Notes under the pieces: model-generated | The model's database searches: none | What the model was told of the DNA's origin: nothing | The model's input: only the letters and a program-made list of their open reading frames with translations | Source: Geothrix sp. PMB-07 | Lineage (GTDB): Bacteria > Acidobacteriota > Holophagae > Holophagales > Holophagaceae | Direction of reading: 5' to 3' | NCBI RefSeq assembly: GCF_030758935.1 | Contig: NZ_CP132333.1 | Location: 1,860,992-1,924,991 of the forward strand | Length of the DNA: 64,000 nucleotides | In this document: positions 12,283 to 29,721 of the stretch, piece after piece | Position numbering within the stretch: position 1 is the stretch's first letter | How the letters are laid out: each line of letters begins with the position of its first letter | Position numbers and translations under genes: made by a program

Positions 12283-12290
12283 AGGTTCTC

Positions 12291-13949: not shown

Positions 13950-13950
13950 G

Positions 13951-14379: not shown

Positions 14380-14396
14380 TGTTTAGCCTCGTTTGT

Positions 14397-14440
14397 ATAT
14401 CGGTTTGTAAATGTGCGTTAAAACTATCTAAAACCGATAT
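14397..14440. promoter_or_regulatory. Inverted repeat flanking the mobC promoter
   Basis: ATATCGGTTT (14397-14406) and AAACCGATAT (14431-14440) are perfect inverted copies 24 bp apart. On the minus strand TTTAAC and TATACA, 17 bp apart, lie within this stretch and could be the mobC promoter, so binding would block it. This fits autoregulation by the RHH protein. Confidence 0.55.
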
Positions 14441-14477
14441 CGAAAACGAATACGCTGAATTGCTTGGAAATCAAGGT

Positions 14478-14604
14478 ATGCCGCGAAAGCGGCATCAGTC
14501 ATGCGATAGCACCATCTTGCCCCCACACCCTTTGGGTGCGGGGACCCTTCGGGCGCGCATACCTAGGTGTGTGCTGCTTTCACGGGTATCTGCTCACTGA
14601 GCAG
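14478..14604 (+). other. Candidate origin of transfer (oriT)
   Basis: This gene-free stretch lies between the divergent mobilization operons. It holds a 7-bp stem with GAAA loop (ATGCCGC/GCGGCAT, 14478-14495), then ACCATCTTGCCCC, close to the P-type nic consensus ATCCTG|C (candidate nick after 14519), then an imperfect stem CCCCaCACCC/GGGTGcGGGG (14521-14543) and a palindrome CTGCTCAcTGAGCAG (14590-14604). Position, hairpin and nic-like hexamer together support oriT. The exact nick site is inference. Confidence 0.6.
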
Positions 14605-14663
14605 GTATTAGGGTTAAACAGCGTGAAGCACTGTGAAACAAGATGAATAAAATGCTAGTTAAA

Positions 14664-14692
14664 TTGACTAGAAGCCTTTGTGGCCCTATTCT
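14664..14692 (+). promoter_or_regulatory. Sigma70-type promoter of the Trb-like operon
   Basis: TTGACT (14664-14669), a 17-bp spacer and TATTCT (14687-14692), followed by GGAGGAG before the ATG at 14717. Confidence 0.65.
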
Positions 14693-14716
14693 TGACGCAT
14701 CTTCCTGGAGGAGCAC

Positions 14717-14968
14717 ATGGCTTTTAAGCCGATCAAGAAGGGGCAGCAAGAAATGAAGGACGTTCGCTTCCAGCTCCCGCTGGATGTCTTCAACGCAGTT
14801 GAGCGGTGGTCCCAGCGTGATGGGATGGAGCCTGCTGACCTCCTGCGCCAGGCCATTAGCTACGTGATGAAGCCCGAGCTCAGGAAGATCCGCGCTGAGG
14901 CCCGTGCGCTGAAGGTTTCGAGGAAGGGCCAGGCTCCGGTTCCGGAAATGGCTGGCGGCAATGTCTAG
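14717..14968 (+). CDS. Small RHH-like protein
   Basis: An 83-residue basic protein. KDVRFQLPLDVFNAVERWSQ followed by EPADLLRQAISYVM resembles a ribbon-helix-helix domain (strand, helix, turn, helix). It may be a second relaxosome protein or the regulator of the rightward operon. A strong GGAGGAG ribosome site precedes it, and its stop overlaps the next gene by 8 bp. Confidence 0.6.
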   Translation: MAFKPIKKGQQEMKDVRFQLPLDVFNAVERWSQRDGMEPADLLRQAISYVMKPELRKIRAEARALKVSRKGQAPVPEMAGGNV

Positions 14969-16841: not shown

Positions 16842-16844
16842 GGC

Positions 16845-18353
16845 ATGGGACCTGGACCAATTACACAAATCATTGCCACCGTCAGCGACATCTTCTCTGG
16901 TCTAGCTGGGAAGGGCTGGGTCTACAATTCTGCGTCTCTGACAGCCATGTCGTTCATGTTCACAATCCTGAGCGTGGTGATCGTCAGCTGTTCGTTTTAC
17001 ATCCAAATCCTGAAGCACAACAAAGTCACCTCCGCAGACGAAAGGATCAACAGCTTCAAAGATGCATGCCTCTATTTTGGTGCCCGTCTTTTCTTCATTC
17101 CATTGATCGTCGGGGCTCCGGCGTTGCCCCTGGTCGCAAAATCAATCGCCGACAATTTCAGCGTCTGGGGGTCGTCTCAGGCAGTGGCTGTTCAAGTCGC
17201 CGGGGTGGGAGATTCGCTTCTAGCCAAGCTCTCGCGGTTGGATCGGATGAGCATTCATCCCGATACAGACCCCACCGGAATGGACCCAGGCGCCCTGAAG
17301 GATGCCGGGGTGGACGCAGAAAAGGCGGCAAAGGTTCGGGCCGCCAGGCTGGAGGCCGCTGCGAAGACGGAAAAATTCACCCAAGAACTGGACCAGGCCC
17401 AGAATCCCCGGGCTAGACAAGCTGCTCAAGCACGCCTTGATGAGGCTAGGAAGGCTCAGGACCAGATCGAAGGGCAGGTGGACCAGCTGCTCAATCAGTA
17501 CAACGTGTGGGCAAAGAAGAAGCAAGCCACCGTTTACAACGCCGAGACCTTTAAGCGTGCCATCGAGAAGTTGGTCAGCAACTACAACGAGGTGCACGGA
17601 GGCTCAGGGTTGGATGGTGGGACCTTCTATGGAGCGAGCGGCACCCTGCAGACCAAGGACGGGCAAACCGTCGCCGTCCTCGGGAACCTTGATCCGAACG
17701 CCATCCAGGCCGTGGTGGACGAGCGAAACGGGAACGTCATCGCCCGGGGGGAAGACATTGCTAGGGCCCTGATGGAGGTAGAAAAGGAACGGACAAAGGA
17801 AGACAAGATCGGGGTCTGGGGTGCGACAAAGCTCTTGGCAGAGTTCGTTGGGAGCGCTGGATTCTATCTCAGCATTGCCCCTGCCGTGCTTGGGATTGGC
17901 GCTGGCAGCCTGGCGACGTTGAAGGCGGCCTTCGGCCTTCTCCAGTTCGGCGCGAAGGTGTCGATCATGGTCAATCTCGGGCTAAGTATCGCGGTGATAT
18001 TCAGCAGTTTCTTCGTGCTCTTGCTGATGTTCCGGAAGACCGAGCAGTTTGGCTTCACCTTCTTCCGCTTCCTCATGAGCGTGATCCTCACCTGCTTTGG
18101 CATTCACTTCGTGATGGGAACGGTGGGTATGACGGTCGCCCATTCTTCGTACGGCCTGGTGGCCACCTGCAATTCACTTCTCGTGAAGGCCGGATTCCTG
18201 GGGAAGAACGGATCCATGGAGCTCTTCAAGATCAGTTGTGGAGCGGGTCTGGCCGCCTTTGCTGTGGGGATGATGGTCGATTTCATCGTCGAGCTCTGCA
18301 AGTCAGCAGGCCAGGTTGCGCAAGGTGTCCTCAACGGAAGCTTCAATCCATAG
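16845..18353 (+). CDS. Polytopic membrane protein, TrbL/VirB6-like topology
   Basis: A 502-residue protein. Two hydrophobic segments lie in the first 100 residues (LTAMSFMFTILSVVIVSCSF; LFFIPLIVGAPALPLVA). A hydrophilic coiled-coil region follows (about 145-230), and four or five membrane segments cluster in 320-490 (GFYLSIAPAVLGIGAGSL; MVNLGLSIAVIFSSFFVLLL). This layout resembles VirB6/TrbL inner-membrane channel proteins. It begins 3 bp after the preceding gene. No VirB4-type motor is nearby, so it may modify a helper's pore or act in entry exclusion. Confidence 0.5.
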   Translation: MGPGPITQIIATVSDIFSGLAGKGWVYNSASLTAMSFMFTILSVVIVSCSFYIQILKHNKVTSADERINSFKDACLYFGARLFFIPLIVGAPALPLVAKSIADNFSVWGSSQAVAVQVAGVGDSLLAKLSRLDRMSIHPDTDPTGMDPGALKDAGVDAEKAAKVRAARLEAAAKTEKFTQELDQAQNPRARQAAQARLDEARKAQDQIEGQVDQLLNQYNVWAKKKQATVYNAETFKRAIEKLVSNYNEVHGGSGLDGGTFYGASGTLQTKDGQTVAVLGNLDPNAIQAVVDERNGNVIARGEDIARALMEVEKERTKEDKIGVWGATKLLAEFVGSAGFYLSIAPAVLGIGAGSLATLKAAFGLLQFGAKVSIMVNLGLSIAVIFSSFFVLLLMFRKTEQFGFTFFRFLMSVILTCFGIHFVMGTVGMTVAHSSYGLVATCNSLLVKAGFLGKNGSMELFKISCGAGLAAFAVGMMVDFIVELCKSAGQVAQGVLNGSFNP

Positions 18354-18362
18354 GGGGGTGGG

Positions 18363-18710
18363 ATGCCTGCAAATCGAGCATGGATAAGGAACCCCAGCCA
18401 AAAGCTGCTCAAGCTGGTTCTGATGCGGCACGGGAGCTGCTCTGCCGCCATCGAGGCACTTGAGAGTCACGGGGACGATGCCTTTGGACCGCTGCCGGAT
18501 GACCTGGCCGTGGTCCGGGCTTTTGGTGTGAAAGGCTGGCTTCCGATCATCCAAGACGTCTACCAGGGGCTGGGAATGGTTCTGTCGTGGACTTGGTGGG
18601 GAGCCGAGCCCACGAGGCCTTCTTGGGCCCTTCCTGGCGCACGGCGCCTGTGTCCAGCCTGTGGGGGGGCGCTGCCCCCGGCGCCTGGCGGCGCCTCCCC
18701 CGGGATTTAA
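18363..18710 (+). CDS. Hypothetical protein
   Basis: 115 residues, basic N terminus, no recognised domain; a CPAC pair occurs near the end. The last 25 codons run through a GC-rich hairpin tract (18665-18708), so the real product may be shorter or the hairpins may have been added to the 3' end. It follows the TrbL-like gene by 9 bp with a GGGGGTGGG ribosome site, so it is probably in the same operon. Confidence 0.45.
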   Translation: MPANRAWIRNPSQKLLKLVLMRHGSCSAAIEALESHGDDAFGPLPDDLAVVRAFGVKGWLPIIQDVYQGLGMVLSWTWWGAEPTRPSWALPGARRLCPACGGALPPAPGGASPGI

Positions 18711-18713
18711 CGC

Positions 18714-19169
18714 ATGGAGGCCAAAGCTGATGAGGAAAGGGGAAGAAGGATGAAAGAAGAGGCATCAGAGGGTTGGATCGATCGCCATGGGAGGCTCCTG
18801 GCGGCAGAGGCCCTGAAGACCTATCGGAATCCCGAAGACGCAATGGTGGCGGTTCAACGGCCCGGCGAGATTCGGTGGCTGTGGGCGGATACCGGTCAAC
18901 CGCGCATGCCTTCTCACTTGGAGGATGGTGCGATGACGCCATTTCTGATGTCGGACATCATGAGGAGGCTCGAAGCTGAGCGCCAGGTGCAGGTACCATC
19001 TCGTTTGGAGGCCTCTTCTTCACGAACTTGCGAAGCTAAAGCCCGGTTGGAAGAGATTGCAGCCCTGACGCTTTCCTGGTGGTGTATGGACGCTGGCGAG
19101 CGGGCGGAACGCGCCTCGGCCGTGATGAAGGAAGTTCAGGCGCTGGCTGCGGTCGGGAGTGGGCCATGA
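18714..19169 (+). CDS. Hypothetical protein
   Basis: 151 residues, acidic and helical (EERGRRMKEEASEGWIDRHG; ERASAVMKEVQALAAVG). No family recognised. ATG 18750, preceded by GGAAGAAGG, is an alternative start. Its stop overlaps the start of the next small membrane protein (ATGA), so it belongs to the same rightward operon. Confidence 0.5.
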   Translation: MEAKADEERGRRMKEEASEGWIDRHGRLLAAEALKTYRNPEDAMVAVQRPGEIRWLWADTGQPRMPSHLEDGAMTPFLMSDIMRRLEAERQVQVPSRLEASSSRTCEAKARLEEIAALTLSWWCMDAGERAERASAVMKEVQALAAVGSGP

Positions 19170-19300
19170 CCTACGTGGCCCGCAGATTGCTCTGGATCGT
19201 GGTCGCCGCTCTTGTCGGGTGTGTCGTGCGCTGGGGCTTTTGGCAATCAGTCCGGCACACCAGCCCTCATCCTCGCAATGTCCATCAACCCCGAGAATAG
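19166..19300 (+). CDS. Small single-pass membrane protein
   Basis: A 44-residue protein, MTYVARRLLWIVVAALVGCV at the start: a basic residue pair then one hydrophobic helix of about 18 residues and a short hydrophilic tail. Its ATG overlaps the stop of the preceding gene (ATGA), which supports translation. The role is unknown. Confidence 0.5.
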   Translation: MTYVARRLLWIVVAALVGCVVRWGFWQSVRHTSPHPRNVHQPRE

Positions 19301-19302
19301 TT

Positions 19303-19656
19303 ATGGTTTCACGCTGCATGCACCCCTGCATCTGCACCTACTGCTATGAGCAGCTTTCCGAAAGCGCTGTCAGAGTCGGCCGTGATTGGGTTTGTCCGGG
19401 CTGCGTGGCGTTCGCCAAGATCGCCCAACCCGATTGGGTCGTTTGCGTTTCTACGAAGGGGCATCGAGGTCAGCTGTCGAGTAGCAAGAGGTATCAGGTC
19501 CTTAATCGCGGGATGCTGCGCAAACCCGGCGATCCGATTCTCCTCGTTCTCGATGATCGAGGCGTCGTGAACTCATTCCCTGGGCTTTGTTTTACGCCGT
19601 GCGACCCGCCGGAGGATCCAGGGCCGTTGAATGTCACCCTGAGCGCTGGCTTGTGA
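19303..19656 (+). CDS. Zinc-ribbon-like small protein
   Basis: 117 residues. Near the N terminus CTYCYEQLSESAVRVGR is followed by DWVCPGCVAF, two CxxC knuckles 16 residues apart, a probable treble-clef or ribbon zinc site. The C-terminal half (WVVCVSTKGHRGQLSSSKRY onward) looks like a small SH3-type beta barrel with a GDPILLVLDDRG strand pair. The ATG at 19303 follows the membrane microprotein stop by 2 bp. No function is assigned. Confidence 0.55.
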   Translation: MVSRCMHPCICTYCYEQLSESAVRVGRDWVCPGCVAFAKIAQPDWVVCVSTKGHRGQLSSSKRYQVLNRGMLRKPGDPILLVLDDRGVVNSFPGLCFTPCDPPEDPGPLNVTLSAGL

Positions 19657-19669
19657 AGGCTCAACGAGA

Positions 19670-19693
19670 AGGGGCCGGGTTTCCCCGGCCCCT
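19670..19693. terminator. Hairpin ending the Trb-like operon
   Basis: A 10-bp GC-rich stem AGGGGCCGGG/CCCGGCCCCT with a 4-nt loop, 14 bp after the stop at 19656. No T run. The rest of 19694-19863 holds only a weak second hairpin (GCGGG/CCCGC near 19830). Confidence 0.6.
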
Positions 19694-19863
19694 CGAAGCG
19701 TGTGTCAGCTTCGGCCCCGGATCGGCGCTCGGGTCGCATCCCTGCGTTGCCCTATCCTCCGTCCGGATATCTCAGTTTAGTTCTGCATCCGTTCTTCTGC
19801 CAGGTAGCTTTGGCCTTCATGCGGGAAATCCCCGCAGGCCCCTGGGGGCCGAGGACAGGGCCG

Positions 19864-20583
19864 TCAGGCCCGGGGGCGTTCTTTGAGCGCGATCAAGATG
19901 GAATTGATTAGGCCCTTGGAGTCGCGCTTGTCCGAGGGAATGGTTCCGATGAAGGTGGTGCTTTGACTCATGAAGATGCCGTAAGGATGCAGGTTCAGCT
20001 GAAGAGTGAATGTGGTCAAACCGTTCTGGGTGCGCGGTTCGGAAGGCTTGAGGGAAACGACGAGCATCCGGACAATGGCGCTGTTCTTGGCTCCCCCGAT
20101 GCTCCGAAGTTCCACCTGCTTCATGAGGCTCTTCAATGCCTCCGAGGACTTGGGGCGAAAGAGGAGCGCGGGACGAAGGCCGAACTGACCGAGGCTGGGG
20201 TTGCTGGGGAAGCTCCGGAACTTGAATTGAGCGAACTGGAGCTCCTCCCAGGTCATCGGGACCAGACCGAGATGGTCCAAGGCTTCAAGAACCTTGTCTT
20301 CCTTCATCCAGGCATCCAGGGCCTTCTCGGGGATGTCGATTTTGGCGCGGCCACCAATGAGAACGCTTTCCGCCTCCAGGAGTTCAGAATCATTGGAGGT
20401 GTCGTTGGAGATCTCCTGAGAGGACTCCATGGAGACGCTGAAGAGCTTGAGATTCTTCTCTATTTGGGCCAGGTGGGCTTTGGCTGCAGGCGAGAGCTGC
20501 GCGGGCTTCCCGGGGTTTGGACGTTCAGCCGCAGCCAGCACCCAACTGGCGGCGAGGAAGAGAGCGATGAGGGAATGGCGCAT
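19864..20583 (-). CDS. Secreted protein of unknown function
   Basis: A 239-residue protein with a clear Sec signal peptide (MRHSLIALFLAASWVLAAAE, cleavage near AAA-ER). The mature part has a Ser/Asn/Glu-rich stretch (about 50-70) and then alternating helix and strand, with no recognised domain. AGGAGG lies 5 bp before the ATG. Its promoter (20745-20773) is built on the same triple 9-bp repeat as the parA promoter and a second copy abuts its ribosome site, so it should be controlled by the same DNA-binding protein as the partition operon. Confidence 0.7.
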   Translation of the reverse strand: MRHSLIALFLAASWVLAAAERPNPGKPAQLSPAAKAHLAQIEKNLKLFSVSMESSQEISNDTSNDSELLEAESVLIGGRAKIDIPEKALDAWMKEDKVLEALDHLGLVPMTWEELQFAQFKFRSFPSNPSLGQFGLRPALLFRPKSSEALKSLMKQVELRSIGGAKNSAIVRMLVVSLKPSEPRTQNGLTTFTLQLNLHPYGIFMSQSTTFIGTIPSDKRDSKGLINSILIALKERPRA

Positions 20584-20596
20584 GATGGCCTCCTAT

Positions 20597-20620
20597 GTCA
20601 AAAGTGGCAAAAGTGTCAAT
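20597..20620 (-). promoter_or_regulatory. Triple 9-bp repeat, copy A
   Basis: Plus-strand units GTCAAAAGT, GGCAAAAGT, GTCAATCCG in tandem, 4 bp from the ribosome site of the secreted protein gene. It differs from copy B at one base in 24. On the minus strand it holds TTGACA, but the sequence 17 bp on (ATAGGA) is the ribosome site rather than a -10 box, so this copy is more likely an operator than a promoter. Confidence 0.65.
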
Positions 20621-20744
20621 CCGCAGTTTCTGTGGATTCGATGCACCTGATTGAGGTGTTCAACTTCGTGGGAGAACAGGTTTGGGGTTTGAACATTTCT
20701 GGAGGCACCCTCCCTTCGCCTGCGGTTCTTGGGCCTCGATTAAC

Positions 20745-20774
20745 AATATAGGCAAAAGTGGCAAAAGTGTCAAT
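20745..20774 (-). promoter_or_regulatory. Promoter with triple 9-bp repeat, copy B
   Basis: Plus-strand units GGCAAAAGT, GGCAAAAGT, GTCAATACT. Read on the minus strand, TTGACA (20773-20768), a 17-bp spacer and TATATT (20750-20745) make a near-consensus promoter pointing at the secreted protein gene. The repeats cover the -35 box and the whole spacer, so a protein bound here would block RNA polymerase. Confidence 0.75.
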
Positions 20775-20811
20775 ACTGGCATAACTGAATTTTTGACCGT
20801 AGGAGGCCCTT

Positions 20812-21048
20812 GTGGGAGCTCGCTTTATTCGAGATGAGAAGGTTTGGCTTCAGGCACTACAGCCTGGAGACGTGGTTCAGCGCCTCATTGGCACGACTGC
20901 TTGTCCAATGAGGCTGAAGGTAACGGCTGTCACGGAAACGAGAATTTACTGCGGAGATTGGGAGTTTGATCGAGACACTGGCTGGGAGATAGATGAAGAC
21001 CTTGGTTGGGGACCGAGTGGATCTGGAACTCGGATTGGTCCGTTCTAG
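20812..21048 (+). CDS. Small conserved-looking protein
   Basis: 78 residues from a GTG start with AGGAGG 5 bp upstream. LQPGDVVQRLIGTTACPMRL is a KOW/SH3-like opening, followed by YCGDWEFDRDTGWEIDEDLGW, a phrase I recall from small uncharacterised proteins of other bacteria; that recollection is not verified. It is divergent from the secreted protein gene and precedes the multi-hairpin tract. Confidence 0.6.
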   Translation: MGARFIRDEKVWLQALQPGDVVQRLIGTTACPMRLKVTAVTETRIYCGDWEFDRDTGWEIDEDLGWGPSGSGTRIGPF

Positions 21049-21079
21049 CAAGGATCTACGAGCTGTGAGCCTGGCCCGA

Positions 21080-21316
21080 CCTCGCGAGCGAGGCCGGGGG
21101 CATCACCCCCGGCCTGCGTCCCCATCCTGGTCGCAGGAGACCGCAGCACAAGGGATCCCGGAGCCCGGACCGCGAAGCGGGTAGGGGGAGGACAGCCCTT
21201 GTGCGAAGGGACCGCCGGAGGCGGCGAGACGGAGTGACGAGGGCGGTAGGGTTCCCTGCGCGCGGAAGCGCGTAGGGCCGCCGTGGGAGTGGAGCGAGTC
21301 CGAGGCCTATCCACGG
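21080..21316. other. GC-rich multi-hairpin tract; candidate structured RNA or origin
   Basis: At least six hairpins are packed in 237 bp: CCTCG/CGAGG (21080-21093); GCCGGGGG/CCCCCGGC with loop CATCA (21093-21113); GCACAAGGG (21146-21154) with CCCTTGTGC (21196-21204), enclosing CCGC-GAA-GCGG (21170-21180); CCGCC-GGA-GGCGG (21212-21224); CGCGC/GCGCG with a GGAA loop (about 21259-21272); CCGTGG (21281-21286) with CCACGG (21311-21316). Three modules end in GTAGGG or TAGGG. No convincing coding frame is seen. It may be a structured RNA, the single-strand origin of the rolling-circle replicon, or an inserted repeat. The remaining sequence to 21625 is described separately. Confidence 0.6.
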
Positions 21317-21487
21317 AGGGCCGGGCGTGTTGAATCGGCGCCCCAGGTGAAAAAATGAGCGCTGGGATCGTGGCGTTTTCCCTACTCGGCCTAATGGAGT
21401 GGCTGCGACTTCTGATTTCTGGTTCACGGAAAGATGGCGATTCGTCAAAAATTCGCTATACTGATAGAATTATCTATGTGCTTGCTT

Positions 21488-21514
21488 AGCTCAAATGCTC
21501 AAAAGCTCAAATGC
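21488..21514. repeat. Direct repeats upstream of the methyltransferase gene
   Basis: AGCTCAAATGC occurs at 21488-21498 and 21504-21514 with GCTCAAA again between them, giving three tandem GCTCAAA motifs about 8 bp apart. They follow an AT-rich stretch with TATACT (21457-21462) that could be a -10 box. They might be an operator for the restriction-modification pair. I see nothing else in 21320-21620. Confidence 0.4.
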
Positions 21515-21625
21515 ACCTCGGCCAACATCAGCTCTTGCCAAGAAGTTGGAGGCGTCTGTGACACCATCGCGTGCTTCGGGTACACTCTTTATTGGCCAAG
21601 CAGGACTTAGAGGAGGGCGGCGATC

Positions 21626-24600
21626 GTGAACAGTGTCCCCTTTCGGAGGGCCCTCCAGGCGAGCGGCTACCTCTCAGAGGATGGGACGCCTGTCCCCGGC
21701 CTGGAAACTCAAGGCGGGCACTCAACTCTGCGGGTGCGACCTATTTTTGCAAACAAGCAAATTGGTTTGTGTGCAGATGCCATATTTACTGCGCAAGGCA
21801 CACCGATAGCCATCTTCAAAGATGCAGGGTGGAGTGAACCGTCAATAGAAGAAATAACTCGATGGCATGAAATTGCTTGGAATATTGGGTTAGCCCCACT
21901 TTTGTGGATTATTACCCCGACTGAAATCCGACTTCACAATTGTTTTGCCACTCCTTCAAGCACTGACGGAGACGGCCACGCCTCCTCCGCTGTTGATAGA
22001 TTTTTGTTGAAAGAGGAGTCTGATCTCCAACGATTAAATGCAGCGTGTGGAAGGATTGCTACTGAAACAGGTGCCTTCTGGTCGAGCGAAATTGGAAAGA
22101 AAATTGACCGGCAGTATCGTGTCGATCAAGAGCTACTTGGTGAAATTAGTGCTTTGGAAGAGCGTCTAACAGCATTGGCTCCTGCGAACGGAACTCCGCA
22201 CGAGAATATTGCAAGAGAAAAGCACGTCTCGCGAGAATTTGCGCAGCGATTGATTGGCAGATGTATTTTCTTCTCATACCTGCTCGATCGACAAATTGCT
22301 CAGCCATTTTTACCAACAAATATTTCTTCTAATATTTCTGAGTCTTTCGAGACTGTAGAAAGTGCTTTTGCTTTATTCCGATGGCTGCGTGAAACCTTTA
22401 ACGGTGATCTCTTCCCAATGGATGATCCTGGGGCAGAGCAGGAGAGGCTTGGGCAGGCTCATTTGATTTTGCTTCGGGACTTTGTGGAAGGGCAAAGCCT
22501 CATCCCGAAGAACTGCGGTAAGAGAAGGCTTTTCCGCTTTCAATTTAATGCGATACCGGTTGACCTGATTAGTTCGATATATCAGCAATTTGCAAGGTCA
22601 AGTAGTGAGGTCGAAGCTGCTAGCCAAGGGTTACATTACACCCCGGTGGAGTTGGTGCATCTCACCCTTGATCCGGTTTTTGAGGGCCTTGCTTCCACTG
22701 CGAGAGTAATCGATCCAACCTGTGGTTCTGGGGCTTTTCTCGTTGAGGCCTTTCGTAGGCTCGTTTGGAAGGGGGCCCCTAATGGAAGACCATCTAGATC
22801 ATTGATTCGTAAAATTCTTTATGAACAGTTGTTTGGCATTGATATAAATAAATCTGCACTGGGCATCGCGGCGTTTAGTCTTTATTTGGCTGCAATGGAG
22901 CTTGATGAAGACCCTGTATTAGAAATTACAGACTTAAAATTTCATCGCCTTATTGGTTCCACGCTCCACGAGGCGGATACATTAAGCGAAGTATTGCCAG
23001 AGCAGATTAATCAAATAGAATTTGACGCAGTTGTGGGAAATCCTCCCTGGACTTTCGTTCGACGTGAGGGATTGCGAACCCGGTCCAACAGTGAAAGGCG
23101 GCCACGCAGAAGCCCTGATCATGGCTTCTTGAAGGTTGCCTCGCGGTTTGCTTGCGAAAATGGGCGGATCGGGATGGTGATGAAAGCCTCTCCGTTCTTC
23201 TCCAAGGATGAGCATGCCGTAGCCTCAAGAATGGAGTTGCTCCAGAATTTGGCACCTGTCGCGTTAGTGAATTTGTCTCAGTTGCGTAAAGAAAAATTGT
23301 TTCCAGATGCTGACGGACCCGCTCTTCTTTTCTTCTCGCGCTGCAAATTGATTCCGAACCGGGAAAAATTGCTTGTTGGTTCTATTCCTTGGTCTCCAGA
23401 TTTCAGGCGAACCGGCATCTTCCAGGTTGGACCTGGAGATCTCCGAAGTATTTCTCTCGATCGGGTGGCCAAAAACCCAGCCATGCTGAAGGCTGCAACC
23501 TTTGGAACGGTGCGAGATAGCTGGTTAATTGAGAGGCTTGAATGTGAATTCCCGACCCTTGAATCTGTTCTGAACGACCTTGAAATTCGTCCAAGTTTCA
23601 ATCGAGGGCAGGGATTTCAGGTTGTAGGGGATGAGAATTCCCCTCCAGACTTGTTCTATAAGCTTCCCATGCTCATGCCCGATGAGTTTGTCCCCTTGCG
23701 GATAAATAGAAGGGCATTGCCAGATTTTGAGTACGAATTCCTACATAGGACCCGGGACGAGGGAATTTATAAAGGACCACTTTTAATTTGCCCCAAGGCT
23801 TGCTTCTCCTCCGCGCTTGAACCTGGTAGGTATTCGTCCACGTATTATGCCCGTGGGGTCGTATATTCTGAAAGCTTTTATGGTATTTCGTTCGCCGGAA
23901 AGGATCAGAGATTTGCCCGTGTGCTAAATGCGATTATGAATTCGAGTGTAACCGCTTTTCAATTTGCCTTTGGAGGTGGTGTTTGGGGATTGGAACGACC
24001 TACAGTCGAACCTAAGGATTTGCTAGCACTTCGAATCCCGAGGCTCATGGATCTAAGTGATTCTCAGATTGACGAGGTTTTATCAATTGAAGAGATGATC
24101 TCGCGAGATCCTTCGAATCGGTCGTTGTTGGTTAAACTAGATGAGGCTGTTTCGAATTTATTTGATTTGAATTTGGATGAGAGAATTGTTGTTCAAGATA
24201 GCGTTTCACGCGCAGGGATGCTCATTTTTGATGGACGAAGTCAGCGTCTAAAGTATACAGAGCTTCCCTCGCAAGATCTGCTAAAGTCATATGCCGAGAC
24301 AGTCGTAACAACCGTTAATAGATATCTTAAGGCCCGTGGGAAACGACATCTCGAAGCGGTTATCTATCCTCACCCACCGCCTCGGCCAAGTTTTTCCAGG
24401 TCAGAATCCCCCATGTCTGTCGTTTCATTCTCGATGGAGGCTGGTTCTCCAGGGGACCACGAGCTGATTGGGATAAGCGCTATCTCTGGAAACGACTTGG
24501 TTCGAAGGTTACTTTCTGGGGCAGAAAATCCGAACGTCCCACCATACTTAAATGAAAGAAAACATGTTCGAATCTACGCTGGGCCTGCGTTGTTTATCCT

Positions 24601-24697
24601 TAAGCCTGCTGAGATTCGTTACTGGACAGATGTTTATGCCCTAAACGATGCTGACATGATTTTGGCAGATCATTGGGTTAAGGGAAAGTCATGCTGA
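21626..24697 (+). CDS. N6-adenine DNA methyltransferase (Eco57I/type IIG-like)
   Basis: A 1023-residue protein. Motif X/I region GLHYTPVELVHLTLDP and VIDPTCGSGAFLVEAFRRL (about 362), then the catalytic motif IV FDAVVGNPPWTF (about 467), mark a gamma-class adenine methyltransferase. The N-terminal 200 residues (ITRWHEIAWNIGLAPLLWII) resemble the lead region of Eco57I-type proteins; I do not see an intact nuclease motif there, which fits a separate endonuclease. The C-terminal half should hold target recognition (TVEPKDLLALRIPRL). GTG start after GAGGAGGGCGG. Its stop overlaps the endonuclease start by 7 bp. Clearly AT-richer than the host. Confidence 0.85.
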   Translation: MNSVPFRRALQASGYLSEDGTPVPGLETQGGHSTLRVRPIFANKQIGLCADAIFTAQGTPIAIFKDAGWSEPSIEEITRWHEIAWNIGLAPLLWIITPTEIRLHNCFATPSSTDGDGHASSAVDRFLLKEESDLQRLNAACGRIATETGAFWSSEIGKKIDRQYRVDQELLGEISALEERLTALAPANGTPHENIAREKHVSREFAQRLIGRCIFFSYLLDRQIAQPFLPTNISSNISESFETVESAFALFRWLRETFNGDLFPMDDPGAEQERLGQAHLILLRDFVEGQSLIPKNCGKRRLFRFQFNAIPVDLISSIYQQFARSSSEVEAASQGLHYTPVELVHLTLDPVFEGLASTARVIDPTCGSGAFLVEAFRRLVWKGAPNGRPSRSLIRKILYEQLFGIDINKSALGIAAFSLYLAAMELDEDPVLEITDLKFHRLIGSTLHEADTLSEVLPEQINQIEFDAVVGNPPWTFVRREGLRTRSNSERRPRRSPDHGFLKVASRFACENGRIGMVMKASPFFSKDEHAVASRMELLQNLAPVALVNLSQLRKEKLFPDADGPALLFFSRCKLIPNREKLLVGSIPWSPDFRRTGIFQVGPGDLRSISLDRVAKNPAMLKAATFGTVRDSWLIERLECEFPTLESVLNDLEIRPSFNRGQGFQVVGDENSPPDLFYKLPMLMPDEFVPLRINRRALPDFEYEFLHRTRDEGIYKGPLLICPKACFSSALEPGRYSSTYYARGVVYSESFYGISFAGKDQRFARVLNAIMNSSVTAFQFAFGGGVWGLERPTVEPKDLLALRIPRLMDLSDSQIDEVLSIEEMISRDPSNRSLLVKLDEAVSNLFDLNLDERIVVQDSVSRAGMLIFDGRSQRLKYTELPSQDLLKSYAETVVTTVNRYLKARGKRHLEAVIYPHPPPRPSFSRSESPMSVVSFSMEAGSPGDHELIGISAISGNDLVRRLLSGAENPNVPPYLNERKHVRIYAGPALFILKPAEIRYWTDVYALNDADMILADHWVKGKSC

Positions 24698-25341
24698 CTT
24701 CTGCAGATTTTCCTTATGGTCAACCATCTCTAGATCTCGGAGAGGATGAAATATTCACAGTTGCCAAATTGATTGTGGATGCAGCAAGAGTAGTCCGACC
24801 GAGTGTGCCCCCTGGCGACTATGAAGTTCCCATTAATATCCGAATGCGAAAGGCATTGCGAAAGGTCAAGCGAGATATTGGTTTGAATAATATAGAAATT
24901 CACGGAGAAGATGAGGTCCTTAACGAGGCTATTGACGATCCAGAAGTAGAGGGACGAATTGATATCGTCGTTCGATTCCTTCAGCAATTTGGGGATGAAA
25001 ATGCCTATTTGGGCATTGAATGTAAAAGACTTTTGCGCGGTGATTCCGGGTTGAATATTAATTATGTTGATAAGGGATTAGCTCGATTTGTTACCTGTCA
25101 ATATTCATGCGGCCATAAGTGGGGAATGATGGTCGGGTATGTGATGAACCCACCCTTAGGCGACATTACTGAGTATCTAAATAGCAAAATATGTGAACGA
25201 TATGGGCCAAGTGCTGCAATGGAGAATGTCGAGTCAAGCGAACTCGTAGATGCGCTAGATTTTAAAAAGAGTAAACACACTCAGATCCGTGCGGCTAATG
25301 ATATCAATATTCTTCATATTATCGTTCCAATGGGGAATTGA
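24691..25341 (+). CDS. PD-(D/E)XK restriction endonuclease partner
   Basis: A 216-residue protein overlapping the methyltransferase gene by 7 bp. EGRIDIVVRFLQQ followed by AYLGIECKRLL fits the Asp...Glu-x-Lys nuclease core; the helix KGLARFVTCQYSC behind it is where such folds often carry a conserved Gln. The name as restriction enzyme rests on this motif, the coupling to the methyltransferase and the shared AT-rich composition. The recognition site is unknown. No controller gene is next to the pair. Confidence 0.75.
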   Translation: MLTSADFPYGQPSLDLGEDEIFTVAKLIVDAARVVRPSVPPGDYEVPINIRMRKALRKVKRDIGLNNIEIHGEDEVLNEAIDDPEVEGRIDIVVRFLQQFGDENAYLGIECKRLLRGDSGLNINYVDKGLARFVTCQYSCGHKWGMMVGYVMNPPLGDITEYLNSKICERYGPSAAMENVESSELVDALDFKKSKHTQIRAANDINILHIIVPMGN

Positions 25342-25360
25342 ATTTCAGTAGCAGACATGA

Positions 25361-25384
25361 AATGAGCGCCTTTCGGCGCTCATT
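25361..25384. terminator. Terminator between convergent endonuclease and par-operon genes
   Basis: A perfect 10-bp stem AATGAGCGCC/GGCGCTCATT with loop TTTC, then ATATTTG. It serves at least the rightward restriction-modification transcript. Confidence 0.8.
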
Positions 25385-25412
25385 ATATTTGTTGACGAAA
25401 GCTGAGAGAAAC

Positions 25413-25898
25413 TTAGGGGAACAGCGGTAGAGCGTCGCCGATTCTGAGCTCCGGGGGCATGGCGAGGAACCCTCGATCGCGAAGTGTCCATACGAAGCCA
25501 TGGACGCCCTTCAGGGCCTTCCTCCGTTCAAGCTCCATCTCCCCTTCAAGCCACAAATCCCCTCGTCGCCAGCACTCCTCGCATACAGCCTTGATAAGGC
25601 TCTTGGTGAGGCGTGCAGGATCAGGCTCGGGGCCCATCGTAAAGTGGAGGTGACCTCCAGCTCGGGCAAGGGCCAAGAGGACTTGGTTGTTCCACGCCTT
25701 ACCAGTCCTGATCCCGATCCGGTGGAGCTGGGGACGCACCAAGTGGCAGAAATCATAGACGAAAGAATCACCGTCTTCGATTTCGTATCTAATCTGGTGG
25801 GCCGCATTTGCCAGGTGAGAGAAGAGATGACGGCGGGCCCGATGTTCATCTACGGCGGCTTGGGCGCGGATTTCATGTTCGGTGATTTCGACACTCAT
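25413..25898 (-). CDS. Hypothetical protein, third gene of the par operon
   Basis: 161 residues starting MSVEITEHEIRAQAAVDEHR. Mixed helical protein with an Arg/Lys/Trp-rich C-terminal half (ECWRRGDLWLEGEMELERRK). No family recognised. The start at 25898 lies after the RHH stop with GGGA 5 bp upstream; ATG 25928 would overlap that gene by 22 bp. Co-transcription with parA and the RHH gene suggests a role in maintenance or copy control, but nothing in the sequence proves it. Confidence 0.55.
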   Translation of the reverse strand: MSVEITEHEIRAQAAVDEHRARRHLFSHLANAAHQIRYEIEDGDSFVYDFCHLVRPQLHRIGIRTGKAWNNQVLLALARAGGHLHFTMGPEPDPARLTKSLIKAVCEECWRRGDLWLEGEMELERRKALKGVHGFVWTLRDRGFLAMPPELRIGDALPLFP

Positions 25899-25906
25899 TG
25901 AAGTCC

Positions 25907-26215
25907 CTACTTGTTCTTTTGGGTCCATTCGGCGACGAGCTGAGAAGGTGTCAGGCGGCGTTGGGCAGCCAAGGCTTTGAGGTCTCCGGCGACATCAGGG
26001 GGAAGGAATAGCGAAACCTTCACCGTTTCTTCGAATGCGCGCTTGCGTCCACCGCGGCGGACTGTGGCGCTATCGACTTGGGATTTGGGGCCAGATGGGG
26101 CAATAGCCTCTGGTTCTTGAAATCCCGGTTGGCGGCCCATGTGTTCTTCCGAGCGGTGGGAGGCTCCTTTTTTCGCAAAGGCGCGAACATCCATGCGTGG
26201 TTTCTTCTCACTCAT
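25907..26215 (-). CDS. RHH DNA-binding partition partner (ParG/omega-like)
   Basis: A 102-residue basic protein. The first 55 residues are flexible and charged; the C-terminal 45 (ETVKVSLFLPPDVAGDLKAL, then RLTPSQLVAEWTQ) form a good ribbon-helix-helix. A flexible tail plus C-terminal RHH is the plan of ParG and of omega, which bind tandem short repeats as centromere and operator and stimulate ParA. It overlaps parA by 8 bp. It is the best candidate to bind the 9-bp repeat arrays on this element. Confidence 0.75.
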   Translation of the reverse strand: MSEKKPRMDVRAFAKKGASHRSEEHMGRQPGFQEPEAIAPSGPKSQVDSATVRRGGRKRAFEETVKVSLFLPPDVAGDLKALAAQRRLTPSQLVAEWTQKNK

Positions 26216-26888
26216 TCGCCGCTCCTGCTTTGGCCTGAACTCGATTGCTGATGAAGGTTTTTGCTAAAGTGACAGAAGAGGCAATTTTGACAACTTTGTC
26301 AAATCCCTTCAAGGCCTTCCGAACAGCTGGGTCGGTTGGAGCCTTTCCTTTGGCGATGGTCTCAGCGATGGCGACATGCATGGGCACGGATCCGATGAAA
26401 TTCCGGCCGTCTTCGGGGGAGTGCCAGGATTGCAGAAGGTCCTGGAAGTCTCTGCTCAAGGCTGTAGGGCGGACCGAATTGAGGAGCACGACTGCCTCCA
26501 TGTCTGGATTGACCTTCCATGCTTCGTCCAGAAGATCGGACATGCGGCCCCAGGCCTGTGCATCCTGGGCACCCCCAGGAATGAGAGGTACAAAGACAAT
26601 GGCAGCTAGGGCTAAGGCTGCTCGGGTCGCCTCGCCTTCATTGGGGGGGCAATCGGCAACATGCCACCAAAGGTTGTCATTCGCTGCGGCTTCGAGGTCC
26701 TCGAAAAGGGTCTCGGGCCAAATGAGCTTTGAATCCACTCTCGCCGCTTCCGCCCAAGTGTGGGCATCCCCTTGCTGAGGATCCAAATCCAGGAGCCGTC
26801 CTGAGCCGTTGAGATGACTCTTGAGGATGGCTGACCAAGTGCTCTTGCCCTGGCCACCCTTAACGTTAGCAACTGCCACAAGTGCCAC
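26208..26888 (-). CDS. parA: ParA-family partition ATPase
   Basis: A 226-residue Walker-type ATPase. The deviant Walker A is VANVKGGQGKSTWSA with the signature Lys; Walker A' is GRLLDLDPQQGDAHTW; Walker B region is WWHVADCPPNEGE; IVFVPLIPGGAQDAQAW follows. Short, without an N-terminal helix-turn-helix, so of the ParF/delta type that relies on an RHH partner. The start is GTG 26888, with AAAGGAGG 6 bp upstream; an in-frame ATG at 26942 lies inside the promoter and is rejected. It should segregate the circular form. Confidence 0.9.
   Translation of the reverse strand: MALVAVANVKGGQGKSTWSAILKSHLNGSGRLLDLDPQQGDAHTWAEAARVDSKLIWPETLFEDLEAAANDNLWWHVADCPPNEGEATRAALALAAIVFVPLIPGGAQDAQAWGRMSDLLDEAWKVNPDMEAVVLLNSVRPTALSRDFQDLLQSWHSPEDGRNFIGSVPMHVAIAETIAKGKAPTDPAVRKALKGFDKVVKIASSVTLAKTFISNRVQAKAGAANE
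26274..26306 (-). promoter_or_regulatory. Degenerate triple 9-bp repeat, copy D, inside parA
   Basis: Plus-strand units GGCAATTTT (26280-26288), GACAACTTT (26289-26297), GTCAAATCC (26298-26306) within the 3' part of parA, 65 bp upstream of the RHH start. On the minus strand TTGACA (26302-26297) is followed 17 bp later by TCTTCT (26279-26274), a weak -10. It keeps the exact geometry of copies B and C although the sequence is also coding. Confidence 0.45.
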
Positions 26889-26913
26889 AATAGCCTCCTT
26901 TGACACAACTGTA

Positions 26914-26943
26914 AAAATAGGCAATAGTGGCAAACTTGTCAAT
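26914..26943 (-). promoter_or_regulatory. parA promoter with triple 9-bp repeat, copy C
   Basis: Plus-strand units GGCAATAGT, GGCAAACTT, GTCAATAGT. On the minus strand TTGACA (26942-26937), 17 bp, TATTTT (26919-26914), then the ribosome site and the GTG at 26888. It matches copy B at 21 of 24 positions. It is probably both the operator and, by analogy with omega/ParG systems, a centromere. Confidence 0.75.
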
Positions 26944-27033
26944 AGTGAAAATCGAATTTTCTAACTTCGAAATGGTCTACAGATTTGAGGAAATGTCGAC
27001 CAAAGCGGAATTCTCTGGTTAAGAGGCTGGCCT

Positions 27034-27117
27034 ATTCTGGCAACGGGAATGGGGGTATTGGCAATGGAATGCCCCCTATTGGCAATGCGGCACCCCCTCT
27101 TGGCTGTAAGGCATCCC
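27034..27117. repeat. Four degenerate 21-bp tandem repeats (iteron-like)
   Basis: Units start at 27034, 27055, 27076 and 27097, each 21 bp, sharing TTGGCAATG near the left and a run of G or C at the right; units two and three are the closest (TATTGGCAATG in both). The 21-bp period is two helical turns. They lie in the 382-bp gap between the parA start and the next gene. The rest of the gap (27118-27270) shows only AT-rich leader and AGGAGGG before the ATG at 27271. Confidence 0.6.
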
Positions 27118-27270
27118 TGTTGGTGACGAGAGGATTATGGGTCTCTTCAAGCCTCATCCGCCCCTGGCGGATTCAATTAGTGCAGATTCGAGATCCAGAT
27201 TTCATGTTTACGGCAAAATCTGTAAATATTTGGTTTGTGGGATAAAATAATCTTGGTTTGAGGAGGGACA

Positions 27271-27825
27271 ATGACCCAGCAGCTGTCTTTTCATGCCAGG
27301 CGTAGAGCATTTTGGATGCGATTTCCCCTGGGAATGCTCATCTATTGGCTATTTTGTTATCTGGCATTTAAATTGATTGGCGCTTATAGCTATCGTGGAT
27401 TTTCGCCAAATTACTATACGACAAAGAATGGGAGTTCCTTTTTTACCATCACCGGATTGAGCATTCTGTTGGCATTTCTGCTTTTCAGTATGGCGGCCGT
27501 TGTTGCATCGATACAAGTTATTGATAAAGATGAAAATGACTTTCGAAAATTGAGTAGGTACTTGGCTAGCCTTATGGTTCTCACCGCGGTTGTTCTTCCT
27601 ATTCTTGGCCAATCCATGGTTAAAGCTAGTAAGGCAAAGGAAATTGAAGGTATTTTCTTGTTGGCAGATGAGCTTAAATTGTCTAGCCCGGAGCTGATGC
27701 GCCTAAAAATTCAATATTTTACGGACTTTCGTGGAATGAACGGGGTCGAAGCCGAACGGATAATTAATGATGCCAAGATTATTCTGGATAAAAAACTTGC
27801 TGAGTCGAGCTTGGATGGTCGTTAG
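27271..27825 (+). CDS. Membrane protein of unknown function
   Basis: 184 residues, AT-rich. Three hydrophobic segments: LGMLIYWLFCYLAFKLIGAY (about 22-41), ITGLSILLAFLLFSMAAVVA (about 60-80) and LASLMVLTAVVLPILGQ (about 98-114). A soluble helical C-terminal tail of about 65 residues follows. AGGAGGGAC precedes the ATG. It could be an exclusion or abortive-infection effector, but there is no motif to support either. Confidence 0.6.
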   Translation: MTQQLSFHARRRAFWMRFPLGMLIYWLFCYLAFKLIGAYSYRGFSPNYYTTKNGSSFFTITGLSILLAFLLFSMAAVVASIQVIDKDENDFRKLSRYLASLMVLTAVVLPILGQSMVKASKAKEIEGIFLLADELKLSSPELMRLKIQYFTDFRGMNGVEAERIINDAKIILDKKLAESSLDGR

Positions 27826-27885
27826 CACCTTCGGTAATCCGTGATCCCGGCAGTCTGTCTTCCATAGGCTTGCGGTCCGGCCCCT

Positions 27886-29310
27886 TCACTCAAGGGTTGG
27901 AAGCTGGAGGTAGTCCAAGGGCAACTGGAAGTCCGTCCGTAATTTATCCAGATAGGTCGTTCCGGCTGCATCCAGGGGCGGCTCCCCGGCGATGATCAGG
28001 CGGCAGGCAGTCTGATTTCCGGGCCAATAGGCATATTCGAGAATTTGGCCCAGGGCCTGCCGGAGGCAAGCCCTGGCGGTGGTCTCCGTCTTGATCTCAT
28101 AGAACCAGTAGCCCTCGGACGTTTGGACCATCACGTCCACATGGTTACCAACCCCACTGCGTACTTCCGTACCGACGTTTTTAGCGCCGTGTTCCCTGAC
28201 TAGGGCTGCGTGGAGCTGCTCCTGGAGGCGGTTGTGGCGCAAATCTAAATTGATGATGCGTTCCACGGGGGTCGCGGTGGCGTACCCTGGCTTCGAGGGG
28301 CAACCAGGCCGGAACGAAAATCCTTGGTCACCTGAAAGTGGATCTCGATCCAGGTGTCCGCCTCCCTCTACAAACTGATAAAGAGGAAGGAGGCGGTCCA
28401 AATCTGCCAAGAGATTCTCGTAATTCAGGTCGGACAAATCTTGGCGCCTACCCAGAAATACGAAGACATCTGGGCGTGCTAGTTCCGGTGGAATGGGGCC
28501 CACAGGGTAGTCCGCGGAACGATGGCCTGCTTGAAAGTGCCACATGCGAAAGTCGGACCAGGACTCAGGTTGAATGGTCATGAATTCGTTGAAAAGGCGG
28601 ACTTTGGGGGCCAGCAGGGTGACGAGGTCGGGATAGGAATCACTGGGTTCGAATGAAAAGGCAACGCCATGCCGCAGCTCCGCTTTGCCCTCGATGTCTT
28701 CGAAGCCCAGATTGAACTGCAATTCTGATCGGCCGCCCCAATGGTAGGCCCAGCCTTCCTTCGTGAACATGGAGGCAAAGGTGGTTTTGGCTGGTAGTTT
28801 TTTGAGTTTTTTCAGAGCCTGGCGGATCTCGTGGAGGCGTCCGATAGGATGGGAGCCAACTTGGCCTTGAATCTCCTTAAGTAGGAGTTCCATCTGCGAA
28901 AGCGGCGGGGGAGGCGGCAGCTCAAGGGATACTGAGAGACCCGGATGGATGATGGTTCCTGCCGAACGAAAATCCGACCGAGAGACCATCTGGGTAGAGC
29001 CATTGACCGCTCCGGTTGAGCGGGAAGGGTACATGAAGTTTTTATACTGGCCCGCGGACAAGGACAGGATCTCAAACGTTCCATCCTTTTTCTGGAAGGC
29101 CCCGTACACTGCCGTAACGCGGGCCAGGACGTTTGGAGTAGCTCCTACGCTGGTGCTGCCGTATTTGGCGCATTTGATGGTGATTGATTGGCCATTCAGG
29201 GTGGCTTCGTTTGTTCTCTTACCGGCCATCTGGGCTCCCAGGGCGGCAGCGATTCGTGGGGCCATGACCCGGCCAAAGATGTTTCCTTTGGCACCGCTAT
29301 TTTCCGTCAT
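27886..29310 (-). CDS. PD-(D/E)XK nuclease-domain protein, likely defence
   Basis: A 474-residue protein. The C-terminal 130 residues carry a clear restriction-nuclease core: GVGNHVDVMVQ (Asp), YWFYEIKTE (Glu-x-Lys) and the following helix RQALGQILEYAYWPG with the conserved Gln. A domain of about 130 residues at the N terminus (KCAKYGSTSVGATPNVLARV) looks beta-rich, and the middle contains WHFQAGHRSADYP. No helicase or GTPase motif is present. A standalone restriction-like nuclease near the element's end fits an anti-phage or anti-plasmid role; this is inference. Confidence 0.65.
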   Translation of the reverse strand: MTENSGAKGNIFGRVMAPRIAAALGAQMAGKRTNEATLNGQSITIKCAKYGSTSVGATPNVLARVTAVYGAFQKKDGTFEILSLSAGQYKNFMYPSRSTGAVNGSTQMVSRSDFRSAGTIIHPGLSVSLELPPPPPLSQMELLLKEIQGQVGSHPIGRLHEIRQALKKLKKLPAKTTFASMFTKEGWAYHWGGRSELQFNLGFEDIEGKAELRHGVAFSFEPSDSYPDLVTLLAPKVRLFNEFMTIQPESWSDFRMWHFQAGHRSADYPVGPIPPELARPDVFVFLGRRQDLSDLNYENLLADLDRLLPLYQFVEGGGHLDRDPLSGDQGFSFRPGCPSKPGYATATPVERIINLDLRHNRLQEQLHAALVREHGAKNVGTEVRSGVGNHVDVMVQTSEGYWFYEIKTETTARACLRQALGQILEYAYWPGNQTACRLIIAGEPPLDAAGTTYLDKLRTDFQLPLDYLQLPTLE

Positions 29311-29700
29311 TCCGGTCTCCTCTCAGAGCTGGCATTCAGAGCTGGCACACCGAATCATCCGTGCTGGTCAGGGATTTTGAGGATTGAGAAAAAGCATCAG
29401 AGGAGCAAGCAGTTTGGGGAGTACTGAGAGTGACCCAACCAACAGGGTTCCCTCAATCGAGCTGCTCGATTTTGGGTGGCAACACCCGCCCTTGGCAAAT
29501 TCGGGATTAAGTGGGAACTCCCCCCAAACGTAGCGAACCATGAGCGAACCAGAAGCTGAAGCACGCTTAAAAATAGGGAAGTTAGATGAACGTAGAGCTA
29601 TCGTTTGAGTCTAGTGAAACAGGATGAAACATTGGTTTAAATTTAAAAATGAAAGAGGTTAAATATGATTGCTGTGAACAGGTGGAAGGAACGGGTCATT
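29311..29700. other. Gene-free right end of the element with short repeats
   Basis: Contains TCAGAGCTGGCA twice (29323-29334, 29336-29347) in the nuclease leader, a perfect hairpin AATCGAG-ctg-CTCGATT (29455-29471), and AGCGAACCA twice (29532-29540, 29543-29551). These could be integrase arm or excisionase sites. I see no gene here. Confidence 0.4.
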
Positions 29701-29721
29701 CTTGATCATGTCGAGCAATTC
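29701..29721. repeat. attR, 21-bp direct repeat
   Basis: Identical to 6511-6531. On the minus strand it again encodes ELLDMIK, now as the end of the stranded ubiA 5' fragment. Confidence 0.92.

What the first reader, a model, noticed from the sequence alone, without database searches (positions are those of the whole stretch)
20597..26943. Four same-orientation triple 9-bp repeats form a partition-linked regulon
Copies A (20597-20620), B (20751-20774), C (26920-26943) and D (26280-26306) each consist of three G(G/T)CAA(A/T)AGT-like units. In B and C the last unit supplies TTGACA and the first ends exactly at a -10 box (TATATT, TATTTT) with 17 bp between; D keeps the spacing with a weak -10 and A lacks one. 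They precede parA, the RHH partner and a secreted protein. Omega of pSM19035 binds tandem heptads at several promoters and at the centromere; here a nonamer version seems to link partition to an exported protein.
Basis: partly seen in the sequence, partly recalled or inferred. Interest (0 to 1): 0.85.

Follow-up and report, generated by a model that had tools for sequence, protein, structure and literature searches.

The report
Partition-module operator repeats, mobile element
A mobile DNA element in a bacterial chromosome carries four matching sets of short repeats in front of or inside the genes for its DNA-sharing machinery and for one exported protein, most likely switch sites for the machinery's own DNA-binding protein; such systems are known from plasmids, and the link to an exported protein is the unusual part.

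Summary
The four triple-nonamer arrays are real. A 23-bp core, TTGNCANNNTTGNCANNNTTGNC, has four matches in the 4.24-Mb genome, all on one strand within 6.4 kb. Of periods 6-15 only 9 gives such an array in the window. With a matrix built from A-C only, D still far exceeds shuffles. B and C overlap promoter-like sites (11 and 10 of 12 matches). C faces an operon of parA, a ribbon-helix-helix (RHH) gene and a 171-aa gene; B faces a gene for a protein that seems to bear a signal peptide; A abuts that gene's ribosome-binding site; D lies inside parA.

The carrier is a 23.2-kb integrated element with 21-bp direct repeats at its ends. Best reading: a ParA + RHH (type Ib-like) partition module whose RHH protein represses its own promoter and that of the exported protein, the arrays possibly doubling as centromere. 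A second par locus of the genome (E1) has an analogous layout with other repeats at period 8. Binding is not shown. Plasmid precedents exist (pSM19035 omega, TP228 ParG, R388 StbA), so this is a new member of a known kind; the exported protein is the new part.

The parts
6511..29721 (.). Integrated mobile element carrying the system (23.2 kb)
   Evidence: 21-bp perfect direct repeat at both ends; of 5 congeners compared, homology ends at 6527-6535 in 2 and resumes at 29912 in 5
6511..6531 (.). att-like direct repeat, left
29701..29721 (.). att-like direct repeat, right
6557..7693 (-). Tyrosine integrase
   Evidence: Pfam PF00589 E 3.3e-20
10429..12282 (-). Conjugation coupling protein (VirD4/TraG type)
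   Evidence: PF10412 E 1.3e-15; NF045973 E 2.7e-15, below cut-off
12291..13949 (-). Probable relaxase (histidine motif IHYHF; my reading of the sequence)
   Evidence: translation; relatives in 8 of 396 genomes of the phylum, own included; no Pfam hit
19864..20583 (-). 239-aa protein with a typical signal peptide (my reading, no predictor run), putative regulon member
   Evidence: translation; no family in Pfam, NCBIfam or PHROGs; of 77 family genomes only its own matches; no match in plasmids
20597..20620 (-). Array A: 3 nonamers, ends 2 nt before the Shine-Dalgarno of the 239-aa gene, no convincing -10 of its own
20751..20774 (-). Array B: 3 strong nonamers (weak units on both sides), forms -35 and spacer of the 239-aa gene's putative promoter
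20745..20750 (-). -10 TATATT of promoter B
25413..25928 (-). 171-aa protein, third gene of the parA operon, function unknown
   Evidence: overlaps the RHH gene by 22 nt; no family hit
25907..26215 (-). 102-aa RHH protein, presumed ParB-like centromere binder and repressor
   Evidence: phrog_2639 Arc-like E 0.0012; AF2 mean pLDDT 66, strands 46-55 and 60-69, helices 73-85 and 90-100; N-terminal motif shared with ParA partners
26208..26888 (-). parA: 226-aa Walker ATPase without N-terminal HTH
   Evidence: PF01656 E 3.3e-8; NF041546 E 1.6e-18, below cut-off; Walker residues identical in the 3 sequences aligned, itself included
26280..26306 (-). Array D: 3 nonamers plus a weaker fourth, inside the parA coding sequence, 64 nt before the RHH start
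   Evidence: GC3 0.27 against 0.59 for the gene; core kept in 780 of 200000 synonymous redraws
26920..26943 (-). Array C: 3 strong nonamers (about 5 with weak units), forms -35 and spacer of the putative parA promoter
26914..26919 (-). -10 TATTTT of promoter C

Best explanation
The element carries a type Ib-like partition module: a small ParA ATPase plus an RHH partner. RHH dimers bind the nonamers side by side, one per unit (the core TTGNCA is nearly palindromic, as fits a two-fold dimer), and cover the -35 and spacer of promoters B and C. This represses the parA-RHH-171aa operon (C) and the exported-protein gene (B, reinforced by A in its leader). D inside parA would be a further binding site, a roadblock or part of the centromere. 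When the element is excised, the RHH-coated arrays, C above all, would serve as the centromere on which ParA acts; at low RHH level, as after transfer to a new cell, all these promoters would be briefly open. Shown: arrays, promoter-like geometry, genes, integrated state. Inferred: binding, repression, centromere role, timing.
For: Four core arrays in the genome, all at these genes and in one orientation; period 9 only, of 6-15. B and C sit on promoter-like sites with 11 and 10 of 12 matches. parA and the RHH gene overlap by 8 nt, the RHH and 171-aa genes by 22. The RHH N-terminal motif is shared with the partners of the two related ParAs of this genome; a looser form (D..AW...G) starts a 46-aa ORF that overlaps the end of a ParA gene in another genus. 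Of 11 plasmid records with a ParA match I opened 4: all 4 have a small gene behind parA, which I read as RHH in 3, and Sandaracinus pSa001 has dozens of period-8 units upstream of parA. E1 repeats the layout with a GTTC core at period 8: with the parA promoter array cut out, a GTTC run like the second one appears in 3 of 200 shuffles of the 18 kb and 0 of 2000 shuffles of the intergenic stretch; allowing any 4-mer of the octamer, in 6 of 200 and 9 of 2000. D resists its coding context: 2 of 212 fifteen-codon windows of parA, D's own included, have GC3 as low, and 0.4% of synonymous redraws keep the core.
Against: No binding data. Three strong units per array; in pSM19035 three repeats bind omega but do not activate ParA. 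No relative of the exported protein found outside this element, and no similarity to the exported proteins of E1/E2. E1's second run is only marginal as a match to the whole octamer (22 of 32, against at most 20 in 40 shuffles), as is E2's best run (also 22 of 32 against 20; no GTTC run at all), and the GTTC test was chosen after seeing E1. No sigma-70-like promoter was found at E1. C ties with three other sites in the promoter scan. The best sequence relatives of the RHH domain sit beside RelE/ParE-like toxin genes (7 of 7 foreign loci: 6 by pattern, L011 read), not beside ParA. None of the 43 named ParA relatives shows the partner motif. In 5 of the 7 other genomes with a related relaxase, and at a fourth site of this genome, the stretches taken show no par genes.
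Confidence: 0.68

Rival explanations
1. The nonamers are operators, but of another protein: the 171-aa third gene product, the weak Rep_1-like protein (8828-10354) or a host regulator. ParA and RHH would merely be regulated.
For: The 171-aa gene is in the same operon and has no assigned function; plasmid Rep proteins often bind iterons (recalled); a Rep_1-like hit exists (E 3.3e-4, below cut-off).
Against: Arrays sit on promoter-like sites by parA, RHH and the 239-aa gene, not by the Rep-like gene; the core occurs nowhere else in the genome, against a host-wide regulator; E1 has a parA-RHH pair with its own period-8 runs.
Confidence: 0.17
2. The module works like R388 StbA/StbB: a DNA binder on 9-bp direct repeats plus a ParA-like ATPase that balances positioning or stability against conjugation, rather than classical partition.
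For: R388 has 9-bp direct repeats (TTGCATCAT) in two sets of five and, in smaller number, in other promoters, and a Walker ATPase StbB (PMC3098194 passages); StbA represses several promoters (PMC3937220 passages). Our element has a coupling protein and a probable relaxase.
Against: R388 repeats are spaced by 2 nt (period 11); ours are contiguous (period 9). The gene order differs (stbA first, ParA-like second; here parA first). R388 stb lies next to the transfer origin (start of abstract); here the module is about 12 kb from the probable relaxase gene (coordinates).
Confidence: 0.2
3. The RHH gene is a relic of a toxin-antitoxin antitoxin, and the arrays are relic or autoregulatory sites without a partition role.
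For: Its RHH-domain relatives in the family are antitoxin-like genes beside RelE/ParE-like genes in 7 of 7 foreign loci.
Against: Those relatives match only residues from about 46 on in the search table; the N-terminus instead matches ParA partners; the gene overlaps parA, and what follows is a 171-aa gene without a family hit.
Confidence: 0.08

Closest known systems
pSM19035 delta/omega (type Ib par; six parS sites of 7-10 heptads WATCACW overlapping the promoters of copS, delta and omega; PMC9499535 passages)
   Same: Small ParA, RHH partner, contiguous short repeats overlapping several promoters, a set of genes under the partition protein
   Different: Nonamer period, 3 strong units instead of 7-10, one orientation only, an exported protein among the presumed targets, integrated element; no PDB chain of that kind matched by sequence
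TP228 / pMET1 parFGH (PMC2262945 passages; PMC5016525 passages)
   Same: parA-RHH operon, repeats upstream of parA stretching over its promoter, RHH protein with flexible N-terminus as autorepressor
   Different: No second target gene in the passages read; other repeats
R388 stbABC with stbDRs (PMC3098194, PMC3937220 passages)
   Same: 9-bp direct repeats at the stability operon and at other promoters; ParA-like ATPase; multi-promoter repressor
   Different: Repeats spaced by 2 nt, sets of five; gene order; StbB dispensable for stability; StbA's fold not tested here
Sandaracinus pSa001 parA locus (PLSDB NZ_CP070226)
   Same: Best-listed plasmid ParA match (33% identity); protein downstream that I read as RHH; long period-8 array upstream of parA
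   Different: Octamer units, dozens of them; only 3.6 kb of the record looked at

Membership tests
Type Ib ParA partition module | Small ParA-type Walker ATPase without N-terminal DNA-binding domain | tested here: met
   226 aa; PF01656 E 3.3e-8, best stretch 4-182; Walker residues identical in the 3 sequences aligned; NF041546 hit below its curated cut-off
Type Ib ParA partition module | Downstream RHH partner with flexible N-terminus | tested here: met
   phrog_2639 E 0.0012; AF2 strands then two helices, low-confidence N-terminus. Weak points: no Pfam or NCBIfam hit, no PDB fold match below E 1
Type Ib ParA partition module | Repeat array upstream of parA overlapping its promoter | tested here: met
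   array C with promoter-like -35/-10; the promoter itself is a consensus match
Type Ib ParA partition module | RHH protein binds the array and stimulates ParA | not testable with these tools
   needs purified proteins
Type Ib ParA partition module | Module stabilises a replicon | not testable with these tools
   needs a partition assay; the element is integrated
Omega (pSM19035) family | Sequence similarity to omega | tested here: not met
   phmmer against PDB sequences, E up to 1: two IrtA chains only, E 0.38; that omega and ParG chains are in the PDB is recalled
Omega (pSM19035) family | Heptad repeats | tested here: not met
   core TTGNCA at period 9; no TTG.C triple at period 7
R388 Stb system | 9-bp repeats spaced by 2 nt at the stability operon | tested here: not met
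   contiguous nonamers; no TTG.C triple at period 11

The most novel reading that the evidence does not exclude
A family of integrative elements couples partition to an exported protein: the RHH partner of ParA represses, through arrays specific to each element (nonamers here, a GTTC-type run at period 8 in E1), both its own operon and a secreted envelope protein, so that both are released together when the element arrives in a new cell; co-resident elements keep different repeat sequences so as not to cross-regulate or be incompatible.
Probability: 0.3. Interest if true: 0.65.

Novelty: new member of a known kind. Interest (0 to 1): 0.42.

Why it matters
If true, it extends the omega/StbA idea, one partition protein as both centromere binder and multi-promoter repressor, to an integrated element, and puts an exported protein under partition control. 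The exported protein could be an establishment, entry-exclusion or surface factor (guess). Three related ParA modules in one genome with different repeats would be a natural test of partition incompatibility.

Tried and rejected
Chance: rejected. D as a by-product of parA codons: unlikely, though 0.4% of synonymous redraws keep the core. A as a promoter: its listed -10 match (CATCAT) overlaps the start codon. The same nonamers elsewhere: none in the genome outside A-D; none by the G[AGT]CAA triple regex in the RHH-relative loci L005-L011; two viral-contig hits of an 18-base pattern lie inside ORFs with no sign of a par locus in what I read. ParA relatives by single protein: none confirmed in viral contigs or genome contigs. 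By alignment: 43 named loci, 26-42% identity, none with the partner motif behind parA; the script looked only near the 3' end of ParA. Relatives of the RHH protein in plasmids: no match. In L019 a short RHH match (40% over 43 aa) lies about 700 bp from a ParA relative on the other strand; not pursued. Exported protein of the window against those of E1/E2: no similarity. AlphaFold model of the exported protein: mean pLDDT 45, not searched. Fold search with the RHH model: best E 1.2. E2 repeats: 22 of 32 against at most 20 in 40 shuffles, not claimed. Autocorrelation alone was weak for E2 and for the stretch with C. The literature searches listed no title or abstract start on a partition repressor controlling an exported protein; passages were read in five papers and an abstract in one more (PMC9723621), the rest seen as listings. 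pCXC100 is named in a review passage as having only direct repeats; its repeat length I could not read.
Full report
Observation. Reading the minus strand, each array is a run of contiguous nonamers TTGNCANNN: A TTGACACTT TTGCCACTT TTGACATAG; B TTGACACTT TTGCCACTT TTGCCTATA; C TTGACAAGT TTGCCACTA TTGCCTATT; D TTGACAAAG TTGTCAAAA TTGCCTCTT (the third unit keeps only TTGNC in B, C and D). The core pattern has 4 matches in the whole 4,242,863-base genome, all in this stretch of 6.35 kb and on one strand; the reversed control has none. The stricter 24-mer with up to 3 mismatches gives A, B and C only. With a matrix from A-C, D scores 29.1 while 60 shuffled windows never exceed 17.4. Of periods 6 to 15 only 9 gives a TTG.C triple in the window. 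D on the plain 24-mer consensus would not stand out (16 of 24), and the degenerate core was written after seeing D.

Geometry. Of 10 promoter-like sites in 19800-27200 (5.3 expected, sd 2.2) B is the best with 11 of 12 matches; C has 10, as have three others. In both, the first nonamer (minus strand) supplies TTGACA and the array ends where the -10 begins. C is followed by AAGGAGG and a GTG start at 26888. parA, the RHH gene and the 171-aa gene overlap (26208-26215, 25907-25928), so C probably drives all three. B faces the 239-aa gene; A lies between, 2 nt from its AGGAGG. D is inside parA, where third-position GC is 0.27 against 0.59 for the gene (2 of 212 windows as low, its own included) and 780 of 200,000 synonymous redraws keep the core. 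Weak units in register extend C, B and D beyond three.

Carrier. A 21-bp perfect direct repeat at 6511-6531 and 29701-29721 marks an integrated element. Of 5 congeners compared, 5 resume homology at 29912; 2 show it ending at 6527-6535 on the left, and 3 align on the left only at about 6-1014, so the left side is variable. It has a tyrosine integrase, a coupling protein and a probable relaxase. The left repeat lies in a gene (5674-6585) kept in a congener at 87% protein identity.

Proteins. ParA: CbiA/ParA family, NF041546 below cut-off. RHH: weak Arc-like hit (E 0.0012) and a model of modest confidence with strands followed by two helices; Pfam and NCBIfam give nothing, nor does a fold search (best E 1.2). 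7 of 77 family genomes match it, own included, with 7 foreign loci; all 7 are next to a RelE/ParE-like gene (6 by pattern; L011 by reading). The N-terminus tells the other way: it shares D..A[FW]...GA..R with the proteins behind the two other related ParAs of this genome (for E1 I chose the start at L016 6055). The 239-aa protein begins with what I read as a signal peptide; of 77 family genomes only its own matches, and plasmids give none.

Related modules. The genome holds two more related ParAs, E1 and E2 (38 and 37% identity); of 396 genomes of the phylum 2 match at E 1e-12, own included, and of 77 family genomes 4 at 1e-6. E1 and E2 are each followed by an RHH-like protein and preceded, divergently, by a 159- or 158-aa protein with what I read as a signal peptide. 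E2's surroundings share integrase, coupling-protein and relaxase relatives with the window; 56 kb around E1 showed none of these, so E1 is called an element by its likeness to E2 (4.0 kb at 98%, 2.0 kb at 95%). That likeness runs past the exported-protein gene, then come about 110 bp without alignment, then 80% identity through parA and RHH. In E1 the octamer GTTCTAAA stands three times at the parA promoter, and a second run with GTTC at period 8 lies between parA and the exported-protein gene; over 18 kb and periods 6-12 these are the only two places. As a match to the whole octamer the second run is marginal (22 of 32, shuffles up to 20); a GTTC run like it appears in 3 of 200 shuffles of the 18 kb and 0 of 2000 of the intergenic stretch, and with any 4-mer of the octamer allowed in 6 of 200 and 9 of 2000. 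E2 shows no GTTC run. E1 and E2 are close relatives and count as about one independent case. In G053 the ParA gene is followed by a 46-aa ORF with a looser form of the motif; of 45 loci examined 2 show the motif, E1 and G053.

Further out. Of 11 plasmid records with a ParA match, all under 60% identity, I opened 4: a small gene follows parA in 4; I read an RHH in 3 and none in Nitrobacter. Sandaracinus pSa001 has dozens of period-8 units upstream of parA. A related relaxase is found in 7 other genomes and at two further sites of this one; in the stretches taken from 5 of those genomes and from the site at 3.25 Mb no par gene matched, so the module looks like a cassette.

Mechanism. The best reading is autorepression plus co-repression of the exported protein by the RHH partner, with the arrays, C above all, as possible centromere. 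In pSM19035 at least four contiguous heptads are needed to activate ParA, while three bind well (PMC9499535 passages); by analogy A would be operator only, and C, B and D could be both if their weak units count. The exported protein's role is unknown; establishment or exclusion are guesses.

Known relatives. pSM19035 omega, TP228/pMET1 ParG and R388 StbA already show partition-type proteins acting at short repeats, in omega and StbA at several promoters. R388 repeats are even 9 bp long but spaced by 2 nt. Hence new member of a known kind; what is unusual is the exported protein and the integrated carrier.

Limits.

Noticed in passing
21488-21511: A separate period-8 triple, AGCTCAAATGCTCAAAAGCTCAAA, lies about 115 bp before the methyltransferase gene at 21626; its unit resembles those of E1 and of Sandaracinus pSa001 (my reading).
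   Followed up: no
21626-25341: N6-methylase/Eco57I-type methyltransferase gene plus a 216-aa gene, lying between the exported-protein gene and the par operon; probably restriction-modification cargo.
   Followed up: partly
5674-6585 and 29659-29841: The element seems to split the 5' end of a gene; the piece at the right repeat looks like its original start, and the element appears to supply a new one (read).
   Followed up: partly
L016 and L017 (E1, E2): Two loci of one genome are 98% identical through the exported-protein gene but about 80% in parA-RHH, with the operator region itself unalignable: possible incompatibility-driven divergence.
   Followed up: partly
L084 about 1072-1490: Sandaracinus pSa001 has dozens of octamers in a row upstream of parA, a likely centromere.
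   Followed up: partly
25361-25384: Strong terminator-like hairpin between the end of the methyltransferase gene pair and the end of the par operon, perhaps used from both sides.
   Followed up: no
19722-19770: A 48-49-bp stretch is about 90-92% identical to stretches near both E1 and E2.
   Followed up: no
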